Assembly (NCBI RefSeq): GCF_001183545.1
Contig: NZ_KQ236688.1
Span: 4,104,395 to 4,168,394, forward strand
Length of the DNA stretch: 64,000 bases
From: Cellvibrio sp. pealriver
Lineage (GTDB): Bacteria > Pseudomonadota > Gammaproteobacteria > Pseudomonadales > Cellvibrionaceae
Reading direction: 5' to 3'
Shown piece by piece: positions 59,852 through 64,000 of this stretch; the first letter of the stretch is position 1; every line of letters starts with the position of its first letter. The notes beneath the pieces are model-generated. The model saw only the letters and a program-made list of their open reading frames with translations, had not been told where the DNA came from and searched no databases. The position numbers were made by a program, and so were the translations under genes.

Positions 59852-60259
59852 TTAAGCAGCGTGATGTTGTTGCAGAAGATGTGGGCGAATATCCGAAGGC
59901 AAATGCGATTCGCTCGTAGGTATGGATTGAATAAATTCAAAAAAATCGCGTTTTTTTATGTGGGTATCATCAATTGCGCCATAACGAATCAAATGGGGGC
60001 CTTGATAAACCCAAACTAGAGGGATGGTTTCAGGAAAAAAATCCCCTAAAAATTCGCAGTGGGTCTCTAGATCAAGCCAAAGCCAATGCACATTGGTTAA
60101 TTTCTTTTCAGAGAATTGGGAAATAGCTTTTTTTACGGGATCGCATTTGTGACACCAAGATGCCCCAAGTGCAATAACGATGGATTCATTGCTATTGTTT
60201 AATATATTTTTTATTTTCACAAAATCGCTCCATGCATCTAACACATTACTGTTATCCAT
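59852..60259 (-). CDS. Thioredoxin-like protein of the accessory island
   Basis: 135 residues, no signal peptide. A thioredoxin fold core with WCHKC (Cys36, Cys39) and cis-Pro near 79 (ETIPLVWVY). The motif is not the usual CGPC, so its redox potential probably differs. It is the last gene of the minus-strand cluster and starts 16 bases after the HEAT-repeat gene stop, so it is likely co-transcribed. In effector loci such proteins could aid folding or immunity; this is inference. Confidence 0.75.
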   Translation of the reverse strand: MDNSNVLDAWSDFVKIKNILNNSNESIVIALGASWCHKCDPVKKAISQFSEKKLTNVHWLWLDLETHCEFLGDFFPETIPLVWVYQGPHLIRYGAIDDTHIKKRDFFEFIQSIPTSESHLPSDIRPHLLQQHHAA

Positions 60260-60275
60260 AAACTCAGTTCCTTGA

Positions 60276-61550
60276 TTAGTATATGAAAAATGGTTTGGGG
60301 AAACTCGCCCATTCCTGCGATTCTTTTGAGAGAGTTGAAAGCAAGGCTCGTTGCCAATGCTGCGGCATAGCGCAAGATGAACTTAATGCTGGTAAAACAT
60401 TATCAACTGATATGCCGTTAAGAAGTCTTCTTTTCTCTGAGTTGTGGGGTGACTGATCAGATAACCACTGTTTAACGGCGGAAGCCGATACCGTACTCAA
60501 GCCTTCCACTTCTCGAAGGAGTTGTTTGATGTGTGGCGGATAATTTCCTTCCTGATCATCGCGAGTGTCGGCGTCAGATTGAATCTCACGTATGTCATCG
60601 AAAGAGTCAAGATTGATGCCGGTAATGTGGTGAATCGCATAGGCAGCGAGTGGCGCTGCAATTTTATGATCTAGCAAAATTATCAGGCGTTCCACAGCGC
60701 TACTGGTGCCGCGAAACGCGTTTGCCCAGATATAATCGCGTAAAGAGGTGCTAGTGTTGAAAGTGGGGAGTGAATGTTCAAAGCTTTGTTCTGAGCTGGT
60801 TATACACCATGTTAGCAAATATTTAAGTCGTTCATTTTTGCCAAGTCTTGGTATTAAGTTAACAGTTTTTTGTTGGTGCTCCGGCCTTCCTAAAATAGCA
60901 AGAGAAGCACTTGCAGCGAGTTGGCATAAAGGTTCATTATCGTTCAGCGCGTTCATGAGAGCAGGAATATAATCGCTAAGTTGATATTGGCCTATTGCTT
61001 CTAAAGCCTTAATTCGAAGTGATAAATTCGACGATTTAATTGCCATTGTTAGCAAAAAGTCGGTATTCATTTCTGGTATTTGTAATGCTGTGCAAATGAG
61101 TGCATTTTTTAATGAATCTGACAGTTGCCAAAAGAACTGAATTGCAGTGATTGCTTTTTCTTTATCTCCGAGTAAAAGTGTCCATTGCAATGCGCTGGAA
61201 AGTCCCGCAGATGAGCTGCTATTTGATTTCACAACCTTGGCAATCGCATGCAACTGTTCATCTCGGCCAGTTTGAATCGCAATGTAACTAGCCGCAAATA
61301 ATTCGTCAGCAGTTTGCCATCGGTTCATTCTCTGGAGTGCGTAAGGCCATGCAGTATCGACCGCAAGGCGCAGCCCTTCCAGATTGGCATCAAGCCGCTG
61401 TTCAATTCGATAAAACTGATTAAGGTTAATGTTCGGGCTCCAAAGTGAGTCTTCCCTTCTAAGCCAACAAAATGCAGCTTCTTCAACGTGTTGCTCGACT
61501 ATAGTGTTGAGTGGACTGCGAGAAATTTTTATTGCGTTTGGTAATTCCAC
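60276..61550 (-). CDS. HEAT-repeat protein, TIGR02270-like
   Basis: 424 residues, soluble. N-terminal part with VEEAAFCWLRREDSLWS, then repeats of the HEAT kind (SLRIKALEAIGQYQLSDYIPAL and PLCQLAASASLAILG, about 190-235) and LDHKIAAPLAAYAIHHITGINL near 310. It resembles the TIGR02270 family, which I recall from type VI secretion-linked loci. It follows the first propeller-like gene by 21 bases. The assignment rests on layout and the N-terminal pattern, not on a search. Confidence 0.65.
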   Translation of the reverse strand: MELPNAIKISRSPLNTIVEQHVEEAAFCWLRREDSLWSPNINLNQFYRIEQRLDANLEGLRLAVDTAWPYALQRMNRWQTADELFAASYIAIQTGRDEQLHAIAKVVKSNSSSSAGLSSALQWTLLLGDKEKAITAIQFFWQLSDSLKNALICTALQIPEMNTDFLLTMAIKSSNLSLRIKALEAIGQYQLSDYIPALMNALNDNEPLCQLAASASLAILGRPEHQQKTVNLIPRLGKNERLKYLLTWCITSSEQSFEHSLPTFNTSTSLRDYIWANAFRGTSSAVERLIILLDHKIAAPLAAYAIHHITGINLDSFDDIREIQSDADTRDDQEGNYPPHIKQLLREVEGLSTVSASAVKQWLSDQSPHNSEKRRLLNGISVDNVLPALSSSCAMPQHWQRALLSTLSKESQEWASFPKPFFIY

Positions 61551-61571
61551 AGTAAGAAAATCCTTTGTCTT

Positions 61572-62570
61572 TTATTGATAAGGTGCAACCAAGCACTGCC
61601 ATTCATTGCCATTAAATGCATGCACTTCATAGTTGCTGGCAACAACGAGCAATCCATCGTAGGCATCCATATGACCGTTGTAGGTAATGAGTTCGCCGTT
61701 ATGTTCCGGAGTTTTTAGTTCTTTTCCATCCCAAACTTTTAATTGGTAACCAGAGCAGAGCCAGAGTTGGTTGTTGAACCATACGCTGTCATTGAATAAA
61801 ACGCTGGAGTAGCCTTTTGCGATTTTTTTCCAAGTGTTTTTTTCGCCAACCCATAAATTGCCGCCTTCACCGCTGATGTAAACCTCACCGGTTGGTGCAA
61901 CCGTAACTGTGTTGAGTTGCTCATTACTGGGGAAGTCGCACTGGTGCCAGCGAGTACCATCGTAGCGCCATACATCGCCGTGACCGCCGACAGCATACAT
62001 GTTGGATTCGTTGTGGCCGTCGAGATCTTCAAAACCAAAAAATCCGTTGCGTATTTGTTCGGAAGTTAATTTCGGAAAGCCATTCATTACTGGTTCCCAT
62101 TTTCCAATATCAACGCGCTTGTATATATCGCGAAAGGAGCCAATCGCATAAGCCCAGCCGTCAATACACTTTAGTTTTTGCGTGGCAATACCTTTGCTAG
62201 GCTCGGTTTTACCGATGGGGGTTATTTCTTCCATTTGCTTTAGATCAGCGTTAACGGAGTAGACCTGACCAATTCTGTTTCTAGACGCTGTGAGTCCTTG
62301 AATTACAGGTTTCCTAGCTACTCCTGCGCGAGGAAATGCGAAACCATTATCAAAATCTGCATAGCCTATACGACTAAATTCTAGGTTTATAGTTACCAAT
62401 CGTGTGGGTACTTCACTATCCCAAAGCTTAGAGAGTTCCTTGTCATTAAGGTCTTTCCTTAGGATTAGGTTAACCATTTTATTTGTTCTTAATGCACAAT
62501 CACTGATAAGCCATCTATTAAATGTTTCATTCCATTTTTCTTTCGAGGTAAAAATATTTTGATTATTCAT
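61572..62570 (-). CDS. Beta-propeller-like protein, copy 1
   Basis: 332 residues, soluble, no signal. The N-terminal 75 residues (up to the WDSEVPTRLVTINLEF part) lead into repeating 40-residue blades with Trp-Asp/Gly motifs: DGWAYAIGSFRDIYKR, MYAVGGHGDVWRYDGTRW, VYISGEGGNLWVGEKNTW, LWLCSGYQLKVWDGKEL, LLVVASNYEVHAFNGNEW. A paralogue lies at 63067. By eye the 3' half (61578-61950) matches the copy with about 18 differences in about 375 bases, while the 5' half is more diverged. It overlaps the stop of the toxin-like ORF by eight bases. Immunity or chaperone role is inferred from context. Confidence 0.7.
   Translation of the reverse strand: MNNQNIFTSKEKWNETFNRWLISDCALRTNKMVNLILRKDLNDKELSKLWDSEVPTRLVTINLEFSRIGYADFDNGFAFPRAGVARKPVIQGLTASRNRIGQVYSVNADLKQMEEITPIGKTEPSKGIATQKLKCIDGWAYAIGSFRDIYKRVDIGKWEPVMNGFPKLTSEQIRNGFFGFEDLDGHNESNMYAVGGHGDVWRYDGTRWHQCDFPSNEQLNTVTVAPTGEVYISGEGGNLWVGEKNTWKKIAKGYSSVLFNDSVWFNNQLWLCSGYQLKVWDGKELKTPEHNGELITYNGHMDAYDGLLVVASNYEVHAFNGNEWQCLVAPYQ
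61578..61950. repeat. Near-identical 3' segment shared by the tandem propeller genes (copy 1)
   Basis: Aligns without gaps to 63073-63445 at a constant offset of 1495 bases. I count about 18 mismatches in roughly 375 bases, most at third codon positions. Beyond 61950 the two genes diverge. Confidence 0.85.
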
Positions 62571-63043
62571 GATTGTTGTCTCTATTTGGTGCTTTTACAG
62601 GATTGCCAAGTTGATCAACAGCATTAACTTTCGCGTTCGGGCAAAGTCCGTTGTAGTAATCTTCAAGCTGCGCCTTTATGCAATCTTTGCCGCAACCAGA
62701 AAGCGGAAACGTTTCTGTGTGTGATTCAGCTGCAGCATCGATTGCATCAGTCATGCTCATCTTGCCGTGTGTATCAATGGCGTTATCTTTAGGTTTTTTA
62801 TCCAGTGCTTTATCAAATTTATTGTGAATCCTTTCATGGCTTCCGCCACTGCCGCGTCCACCTTCAACACATACCACTGGTGCGTCACTATCTTTATAGC
62901 CGGGGCAGCAACCGCGTCTACACATTTTTGCGATCAGTTTTGTTGGGTTTTGATGGCTCTACATTGCCTGCGCTGTTGCCTTGTTTTTTGTGGGGAATCA
63001 GGCTGCATTTGTGTGCGCGAATATGGGAGGGTAATGTTGCCAT
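62563..63043 (-). pseudogene. Tox-GHH2-like nuclease toxin gene, split at an A5 tract
   Basis: Two overlapping frames. The first (ATG at 63043, 41 residues, MATLPSHIRAHKCSLIPHKK) ends TAG at 62918. The second (62563-62925, 120 residues) begins at an ATG inside the A5 run 62925-62929; losing one A fuses them to about 159 residues. The second frame has the pattern of a Tox-GHH2 (HNH/Endo VII-like) nuclease domain: SDAPVVCVEGG, GGSHERIHNKFDK, AIDAAAESHT, GCGKDCIKAQLEDYYNG. The family call is from memory of the pattern. It could be a pseudogene, a frameshifted real gene, or a sequencing artefact. Eight bases overlap copy 1. Confidence 0.5.
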
Positions 63044-63066
63044 CCTTGGTTAATTCCTATCGATAG

Positions 63067-64000
63067 TTATTCATAAGGTGCAACCAAGCACTGCCATTCA
63101 TTGCCATCAAATGCATGTACTTCATAGTTGCTGGCAACAACGAGCAATCCATCGTAGGCATCCATGTGGCCGTTGTAGGTAATGAGTTCGCCATTATGCT
63201 CTGGGGTTTTTAATTCTTTACCATCCCAAACTTTTAATTGGTAACCAGAACAGAGCCAGAGTTGGTTGTTAAACCATACGCTGTCATTGAATAAAACGCT
63301 GGAGTAGCCTTTTGCGATTTTTTTCCAAGTGTTTTTTTCTCCGACCCATAAATTGCCGCCTTCACCGCTGATGTAAACCTCGCCGGTTGGTGCAACCGTA
63401 ACTGTGTTGAGTTGCTCATTACTGGGGAAATCGCATTGATGCCAACACGCACCGTCGTAGCGCCATACATCGCCGTGACCGCCGATAGCGTACATATTGG
63501 ATTCGTTGGGGCCATCCAGATCATTAAAACCGTAGTGACCATTTTCAATCTGTTCAGGTGTTAGTCGTGGAAAGCCATTCATCACTTTTTCCCAGTGTCC
63601 TATATCTACTCGTTTATAGATTTTTCTGAACATTCCAATGGCATATGCCCAGCCATCAATACACTTGAGTTTTAACGTGACTATTCCTTTGCTGGGATCG
63701 GTTTTTCCTATAGGAGTTATTTCTTCGAGATCTTCCATGCCTGATCCGATAAAACCTATTGTTCCTGATCTCGTTCTTGATGATGCCAATCTTTGCATAA
63801 CTGGTTTTCTTGAAACGCCAGCTCTTGGAAAGCTCATCCCATTAAATCCAATGTGTCCACTTTTTTCAGGGTTGTCATCAATAAAAATTGTAAGTAATCG
63901 TGTTGGTACTTCGCTGTCCCAAAGGGTTTCTATTTCTCCTTCTGGTATATCTTTGCGAAGAACAAATGCAATTTTTTCTTTTGTTAATACCGCACAATCT
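63067..64000 (-). CDS. Beta-propeller-like protein, copy 2 (5' partial)
   Basis: The frame runs to the right edge without a stop, so its start lies outside. The visible 310 residues align with copy 1 over the full length: the edge sequence LRKDIPEGEIETLWDSEVPT matches LRKDLNDKELSKLWDSEVPT. The annotated ATG at 63837 (MSFPRAG) is internal. The C-terminal half is nearly identical to copy 1, the N-terminal half about two-thirds similar by eye. The toxin-like ORF begins 23 bases after its stop. Order on the minus strand is copy 2, toxin-like ORF, copy 1, HEAT protein, thioredoxin-like. Confidence 0.7.
   Translation of the reverse strand, partial: DCAVLTKEKIAFVLRKDIPEGEIETLWDSEVPTRLLTIFIDDNPEKSGHIGFNGMSFPRAGVSRKPVMQRLASSRTRSGTIGFIGSGMEDLEEITPIGKTDPSKGIVTLKLKCIDGWAYAIGMFRKIYKRVDIGHWEKVMNGFPRLTPEQIENGHYGFNDLDGPNESNMYAIGGHGDVWRYDGACWHQCDFPSNEQLNTVTVAPTGEVYISGEGGNLWVGEKNTWKKIAKGYSSVLFNDSVWFNNQLWLCSGYQLKVWDGKELKTPEHNGELITYNGHMDAYDGLLVVASNYEVHAFDGNEWQCLVAPYE
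63073..63445. repeat. Near-identical 3' segment shared by the tandem propeller genes (copy 2)
   Basis: Partner of 61578-61950. Sharp loss of similarity upstream suggests recombination or gene conversion between the copies. Confidence 0.85.

What the first reader, a model, noticed from the sequence alone, without database searches (positions are those of the whole stretch)
59852..64000. Candidate toxin/immunity island: tandem propeller paralogues around a Tox-GHH2-like ORF, with HEAT and thioredoxin-like partners
Seen: on the minus strand two paralogues flank a small Cys/His-rich ORF, all overlapping or closely spaced, followed by a HEAT-repeat and a WCHKC thioredoxin-like gene. Known: Tox-GHH2 nucleases are polymorphic or type VI effectors, and such loci often show repeated immunity genes next to orphan toxin modules. 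Inference: the propeller-like proteins could be immunity proteins or effector adaptors, the rest accessory factors. The island is AT-richer than its surroundings and continues past the right edge, where a VgrG, PAAR or Rhs gene would be expected.
Basis: partly seen in the sequence, partly recalled or inferred. Interest (0 to 1): 0.75.

Follow-up and report, generated by a model that had tools for sequence, protein, structure and literature searches.

The report
T6SS nuclease toxin with immunity array
This is the tail end of a bacterial harpoon (type VI secretion) gene cluster, probably in a Cellvibrio bacterium: one DNA-cutting toxin is followed by three alternative immunity genes and two leftover, disarmed toxin ends, a layout like known toxin-immunity arrays but with pieces that have been shuffled between two species.

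Summary
The 120-aa ORF is a Tox-GHH2 tail (Pfam above cut-off) but lacks the GHH motif. Past the right edge lie VgrG, DUF2169, a thiolase-like gene, a 525-aa Tox-PAAR-like + Tox-GHH2 effector with GHH, ClpV and T6SS core genes, plus a second detached tail and a third propeller gene. In 38 of 63 relatives' loci a propeller gene lies just downstream of a GHH2 tail. The layout matches the Proteus mirabilis pef operon, where PefE, a modelled propeller, neutralises the Tox-GHH2 toxin PefD (PMC5714391). So it is a pef-like operon, a known kind. The variant is the array. A second Cellvibrio genome also has three modules, with contents permuted. Immunity N-halves group by type across genomes; C-halves group within a genome for five of six copies; one copy is a clear chimera (0 of 5000 shuffles). 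Detached tails stay conserved (dN/dS 0.01-0.03), although both here have lost GHH. I read the array as recombining allele cassettes. Whether exchange happens within a cell line or between strains is unresolved; toxin-immunity co-variation was not significant.

The parts
59852..60259 (-). Thioredoxin-like protein, 135 aa, WCHKC motif; last gene of the cluster
   Evidence: relatives: 28 ORFs in 26 of 65 loci, WCxxC in 26 of the 28
60276..61550 (-). HEAT/armadillo-repeat protein, 424 aa (TIGR02270-like, below that model's cut-off)
   Evidence: relatives in 41 of 65 loci
61572..62570 (-). Propeller-like immunity protein of module 3 (W3), 332 aa; type-C N-half
   Evidence: PefE-like by position and sequence
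62563..62925 (-). Detached Tox-GHH2 tail of module 3, 120-aa ORF, GHH stretch missing
62918..63043 (-). Leader and linker of the detached module-3 tail: short ORF (41 codons and stop) with its own start, out of frame with the tail
63067..64000 (-). Propeller-like immunity protein of module 2 (W2), 332 aa in all; runs to 64065 on the contig

Best explanation
The region is the 3' end of a T6SS spike/effector operon of the pef ('synteny type A'-like) kind in a Cellvibrio species. The effector (Tox-PAAR-like head, Tox-GHH2 nuclease tail) is loaded on VgrG with help from DUF2169, thiolase-like, HEAT and perhaps Trx-like proteins and is injected into neighbours. The propeller protein just downstream blocks the toxin in the producer and its kin (shown for PefD/PefE in P. 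mirabilis; inferred here). The two extra propellers would protect against other allelic toxin types (inferred). The two extra toxin tails are detached cassettes; both have lost the GHH stretch and should be inactive as nucleases. Modules share a left arm (linker plus GHH codons) and a right arm (C-half of the immunity gene) around a variable core (toxin segment, immunity N-half). The arms are kept alike inside the second genome and, for two of three immunity genes, inside this one. Recombination through the arms has shuffled the cores among three slots, between or within strains (inferred).
For: Family and neighbourhood. A GHH2 tail lies just upstream of a propeller in 38 of 63 loci, 36 of them with GHH, and of 43 of 88 full-length propeller ORFs. 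Second Cellvibrio genome with three modules: toxin types A/B/C in slots 1-3 here, B/C/C there. The detached tails K2 and K3 there and the W3 leader here share the same junction with a ribosome-site-like stretch and ATG. Immunity N-half DNA: W1-K3 0.76, W2-K1 0.67, W2-K2 0.71, K1-K2 0.69, the other pairs compared 0.50-0.55; C-half: K1-K3 among themselves 0.94-0.96, W2-W3 0.94, between genomes 0.85-0.87 for the six pairs compared. Chimera test for K3: 0 of 5000 shuffles; K2: 1 of 5000 for each of two stretches, chosen after seeing the pattern. Same-type tails: W2-K1 4.7 amino-acid-changing and 33.3 silent differences, W3-K2 4.0 and 30.0. PefE S137, A138, K140 map to W3 145, 146, 148.
Against: No function was measured here. 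Structure prediction was off, so 'propeller' rests on weak matches and the published PefE model. The C-half of W1 is no closer to W2 and W3 (0.87, 0.89) than to the other genome (0.87 for K1 and K3), so C-halves do not group by genome for that copy. Toxin-segment and immunity-block distances over the six modules are not significantly correlated (N r=-0.05, 374 of 720; block ii r=0.19, 138 of 720; block iii r=0.00, 360 of 720), and 36 pairs from many genera gave no clear peak. K3 pairs a C-type tail with B-type specificity residues; 5 of 6 matches is reached by 3 of 60 label arrangements. The single-break test on the whole K2 gene was not significant (1219 of 5000). 45 of 88 propellers have no tail upstream; only 2 of these 45 had less than 700 nt held.
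Confidence: 0.8

Rival explanations
1. Plain sequential displacement as in V. cholerae: new effector-immunity modules came in from other strains at the effector head, and old immunity genes with tail ends were pushed downstream and are decaying. (A rival for the array history only, not for the toxin-immunity reading.)
For: Same layout as in PMC5361080; both detached tails here have lost GHH; tails of the same types occur as short ORFs in other sources.
Against: Detached slots with the same junction (W3, K2, K3; W2 only partly alike) are shared by two genomes at large silent divergence; same-type tails show dN/dS 0.01-0.03; linkers of K1-K3 and C-halves of K1-K3 and W2-W3 are more alike inside a genome than between genomes, which one-way displacement does not give. 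W1 does not show this in its C-half.
Confidence: 0.3
2. Tandem duplication in place with later divergence.
For: K2 and K3 tails are close (dS 0.35).
Against: Toxin segments of W2 and W3, and N-halves of W1, W2 and K3, have closer relatives in the other genome than in their own.
Confidence: 0.05
3. Detached tails are genes in their own right (free nuclease with own start and immunity, or a dead tail acting as decoy), kept by selection.
For: W3 leader and K2/K3 tails share a ribosome-site-like stretch and ATG; strong conservation.
Against: W2 has no such start; W3 is out of frame with its leader; both lack GHH. Recent loss would also explain this.
Confidence: 0.15
4. Propellers are adaptors or loading factors rather than immunity proteins.
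Against: PefE protects against PefD independent of T6SS activity (PMC5714391, abstract); the family stands in tandem in 15 of 65 loci, as immunity genes often do.
Confidence: 0.04

Closest known systems
Proteus mirabilis pef operon (PefD/PefE, orphan PefE2)
   Same: vgrG, DUF2169, PAAR-like + Tox-GHH2 effector, propeller immunity of about 320 aa differing mostly in its N-half, and in L054 a downstream Trx-like gene; second, differently specific immunity copy nearby (PMC5714391, sections 8, 9; locus L054)
   Different: Here three immunity alleles stand in tandem, with two toxin tails between them; in HI4320 pefE2 is a few genes downstream beside transposase pseudogenes and an rhs fragment
P. 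aeruginosa vgrG1b cluster (Tse7/Tsi7, PA0095-PA0101)
   Same: VgrG, OB-fold, DUF2169, thiolase-like, Tox-GHH2 effector, immunity, HEAT (passages of PMC7970981, PMC11883445, PMC9846239)
   Different: One immunity gene in that passage's list; Tsi7 was not compared by sequence here
V. cholerae immunity gene arrays by sequential displacement
   Same: One active effector, several immunity genes and an effector 3' end downstream (PMC5361080, abstract and passages)
   Different: Here alleles of one toxin family with shared arms and matching slots in two species
CDI/Rhs orphan CT-immunity modules; Neisseria mafB-CT silent cassettes
   Same: Silent toxin ends with immunity genes that can be loaded by recombination (PMC3150448, PMC4287609, passages)
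   Different: There toxin ends next to each other are often unrelated and the join is at VENN or a similar motif; here the tails are of one family, the left arm includes the catalytic GHH codons and the right arm lies inside the immunity gene

Membership tests
Tox-GHH2 nuclease (PF15635) | Profile match above cut-off (25 bits) | tested here: met
   525-aa effector 32.3 bits; 120-aa ORF 33.7; module-2 tail 21.9 as an ORF but 27.3 in the genome scan
Tox-GHH2 nuclease (PF15635) | Catalytic GHH motif, effector outside the window | tested here: met
   Present in the 525-aa protein
Tox-GHH2 nuclease (PF15635) | Catalytic GHH motif, the two detached tails | tested here: not met
   Absent from both; they are remnants, not active members
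T6SS synteny type A / pef operon | VgrG, DUF2169, thiolase-like, DUF4150/PIPY effector, armadillo-like gene in order | tested here: met
   the effector head contains PIPY. The thiolase-like and HEAT matches lie below the NCBIfam cut-offs
T6SS synteny type A / pef operon | DUF6484 gene | tested here: not met
   The 166-aa gene has no DUF6484 match; VgrG has one below cut-off. The 166-aa gene has position-conserved relatives in other clusters. So I file the locus as pef-like, not as a strict type A member
PefE immunity family | Follows the GHH2 toxin gene; similar length; variable N-half | tested here: met
   48% identity to the C-terminal part of both P. mirabilis copies
PefE immunity family | Propeller fold | tested here: inconclusive
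   Weak matches only; structure tool off
PefE immunity family | Neutralises its cognate toxin, allele-specific | not testable with these tools
   Needs co-expression and competition assays
Sequential-displacement immunity array | Immunity genes of one genome do not group together | tested here: inconclusive
   Largely so for N-halves (but K1-K2 0.69 is like W2-K1 and W2-K2); not so for the C-halves of K1-K3 and W2-W3
CDI/Rhs orphan module | Detached toxin end lacks translation start | tested here: inconclusive
   W2 none seen; W3 leader, K2 and K3 have ATG and a ribosome-site-like stretch

The most novel reading that the evidence does not exclude
The array is a standing allele-switching device for T6SS kin recognition. 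Detached tails are templates, not junk: because the catalytic GHH codons belong to the left recombination arm carried by the effector head, a tail that has lost GHH is disarmed while detached yet still carries the specificity segment. Frequent re-loading through the two arms keeps the tails under purifying selection, keeps arms alike within a genome, and permutes types among old slots while older immunity genes stay.
Probability: 0.3. Interest if true: 0.65.

Novelty: new variant of a known kind. Interest (0 to 1): 0.42.

Why it matters
Why bacteria keep toxin ends next to orphan immunity genes is called unclear for CDI (PMC3150448, passage). Here matching slots in two species, permuted contents, partly homogenised arms and conserved but GHH-less tails make the idea of re-usable specificity cassettes testable in Cellvibrio. 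It also shows that PefE-like proteins, for which the ones I scanned had no Pfam or NCBIfam match above cut-off, are widespread (232 relatives) and often in tandem (15 of 65 loci; loci were picked by C-half patterns, so this is not a random sample).

Tried and rejected
Adaptor role for the propellers: set aside on the PefE literature and the tandem pattern. Co-variation of toxin and immunity regions: of 43 toxin-propeller pairs, 38 with a complete tail and 36 after removing near-duplicates were used, and the six Cellvibrio modules; no significant signal in the six and no clear peak in the 36, so not used as support. 'GHH-less tails recur in many genera': first read from ORF calls, but DNA showed that one case (L091, second tail) has GHH upstream in frame without a start codon and another (L089) is cut by unrelated DNA; after a frame-wise scan 2 full-length cases outside Cellvibrio remained (L064, L089), so I dropped the claim. 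Tandem count: 16 loci by ORF ends became 15 by match coordinates. First genome-contig scan with one protein confirmed none of 24 stretches; the scan with alignment A1 gave 63 loci, of which the propeller model matched in 62. A class-wide search gave 13 of 369 genomes, most of the matches outside this genome weak or partial; not followed. PADLOC: no match. Short-tail search gave only 4 relatives, one probably this genome's own. Promoter scan: fewer sites than in shuffles, not informative. Literature searches that showed me no report of this array in their listings: 20 of 43 shown; 10 of 17; 12 of 95; only open-licence PMC papers are held.
Full report
WHAT IS THERE. The window is bases 4,104,395-4,168,394 of contig C2 of a 4.43-Mb genome. 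Genome G013 of the same genus has a contig of 5,762,391 bases, the length given for a protein named 'Cellvibrio sp. KY-GH-1', so the organism is a Cellvibrio species (inference). I fetched the contig beyond the right edge (L006; window coordinate = L006 coordinate + 56605; L007 follows). Reading the minus strand towards the window: T6SS core genes (in L007, 9 proteins scanned and all 9 matched T6SS or baseplate families: TssG, TssF, gp25, Hcp, VipB, VipA, ImpA_N, VasE, DotU; the last two are on the plus strand), ClpV, VgrG, a 166-aa gene, DUF2169, a ketoacyl-synthase/thiolase-like gene, a 525-aa protein with Tox-PAAR-like (96.8 bits) and Tox-GHH2 (32.3 bits) domains, then propeller 1 (341 aa), a detached GHH2 tail, propeller 2 (332 aa), a second detached tail, propeller 3 (332 aa), HEAT and Trx-like genes. 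Tox-GHH2 gave 3 matches in this genome, all in this locus, and none in 14 control genomes.

I call the modules W1-W3 here and K1-K3 in G013 (L014). W1 and K1 carry the tail joined to a PAAR-like head.

THE DETACHED TAILS ARE DISARMED HERE. Both lack the roughly 20 residues that hold GHH, and the W3 leader is out of frame with its tail. [A/G]HH is required for activity of Tse7 and relatives (PMC10902643, passage read). K2 and K3 keep GHH, so intact relatives exist.

THE PROPELLERS ARE IMMUNITY PROTEINS (inference from relatives). The database holds 232 relatives at E<=0.001, 120 listed. 19 of 21 genomes of the genus have none, so the family is patchy. Of 63 named loci, 38 have a GHH2 tail within 700 nt upstream of a propeller, 36 of them with GHH. 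Of 88 full-length propeller ORFs in 65 loci (the 63 plus the two Cellvibrio loci), 39 follow a tail with GHH, 4 a tail without, 45 none. One locus is Proteus mirabilis (L054). There PefD (PAAR + Tox-GHH2) is toxic in E. coli and PefE protects; PefE and PefE2 differ mostly in the N-terminal half and protect only against their own pef allele; the specificity element is aa 136-158, with S137, A138 and K140 (PMC5714391: abstract, sections 8, 9, 13, 14 and passages read; the three residues alone did not switch specificity in that paper). Counting back from the C-terminus of the L054 protein as a 320-aa protein gives S137-A138-R139-K140, aligned to W3 S145-F146-R147-D148.

TWO GENOMES, MATCHING SLOTS, PERMUTED CONTENTS. 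Toxin variable-segment types: W1 A, W2 B, W3 C; K1 B, K2 C, K3 C. The active type of G013 is a dead remnant here. The immunity genes fall in three blocks (30-codon windows). Columns 30-150: W1 with K3; W2 with K1 and K2; W3 alone. Columns 150-210: W2 with K1 and K3; W3 with K2; W1 alone. Columns 210-358: K1-K3 0.87-1.00 among themselves and W2-W3 0.87-0.98, against 0.79-0.91 between genomes; W1 is not closer to W2 and W3 over the whole C-half (0.87, 0.89) than to K1 and K3 (0.87 each, the ones compared). In silent divergence: K1-K3 0.26-0.41, W2-W3 0.31, W1 to W2 and W3 1.16 and 0.84, between genomes 0.88-1.62. K3 is a chimera of W1-like and K1-like parts (0 of 5000 shuffles). K2 gave 1 of 5000 in each of two overlapping stretches that I chose after seeing the windows, and 1219 of 5000 for a single break on the whole gene. 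The linker+GHH stretch is more alike within G013 (dS 0.10-0.29) than between genomes (0.78-0.88). Residues at the three PefE positions are L-F-K (W1), M-F-K (W2, K1, K3), S-F-D (W3, K2) (read): they agree with the toxin type in 5 of 6 modules, which 3 of 60 label arrangements reach. This is suggestive only; I assigned the labels.

CONSERVATION OF DEAD TAILS. Over 78 codons W2 and K1 differ by 33.3 silent and 4.7 changing differences (dS 1.95, dN 0.026); W3 and K2 by 30.0 and 4.0 (dS 1.33, dN 0.022); five backbone genes or parts have dS 1.06-2.61 and DUF2169 is saturated. So tail types are about as diverged as the rest of the cluster, and unconstrained time must be short: with dS 1.33 and 186 changing sites, 4 changes equal about 2% of the path (my arithmetic). 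W3, K2 and K3 share the junction after the preceding immunity stop, with a ribosome-site-like stretch and ATG; W2 matches it only partly. Either contents are refreshed by recombination with active copies (own or other strains), or detached tails have long been functional genes and died recently here.

MECHANISM AND LIMITS. Shown: gene content, mosaic structure, arms alike within G013 and partly here, conservation. Taken from relatives: toxin-immunity function; delivery roles of DUF2169 and neighbours (PMC11883445: abstract and passages). Inferred: recombination through the arms swaps specificity cores. Not shown: that exchange happens within a cell lineage; that the extra propellers are expressed; that any of them protects. 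The co-variation tests did not support a link between toxin segment and any one immunity block.

NOVELTY. Known: pef-type operon (PMC5714391), orphan immunity arrays (PMC5361080), silent CT cassettes (PMC3150448, PMC4287609). New as far as my searches reach (listings): an array of alleles of one GHH2 toxin family with arms at the catalytic motif and inside the immunity gene, matching slots in two species, and dead but conserved tails.

Noticed in passing
L014:1301-4308: In the second Cellvibrio genome four ORFs (439, 173, 195, 176 aa; by eye two pairs of similar proteins) lie between clpV and vgrG; in the window's genome clpV abuts vgrG at this place. Possibly another effector-immunity module.
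   Followed up: no
L054:5022-6597 and L053:6151-6618: In the draft of Proteus mirabilis ATCC 29906 both propeller genes are open only in their C-terminal part (176 and 155 aa), while PefE is reported as 320 aa; broken genes or a draft error. Described only.
   Followed up: partly
L097:5378-6642, L098: A MAG labelled Peptococcaceae carries propeller relatives, one beside a GHH2-type tail; a binning error or another delivery route.
   Followed up: no
L089:5000-5460: In Massilia mucilaginosa the toxin tail is cut just upstream by unrelated DNA that I did not identify.
   Followed up: partly
window:59852-60259: The Trx-like gene with a WCxxC motif recurs in these clusters (26 of 65 loci), although it was not among the type A genes named in the passages of PMC11883445 that I read; the GHH2 tails are themselves Cys-rich.
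   Followed up: partly
L006:18002-18931: 309-aa protein next to clpV without Pfam or NCBIfam match.
   Followed up: no
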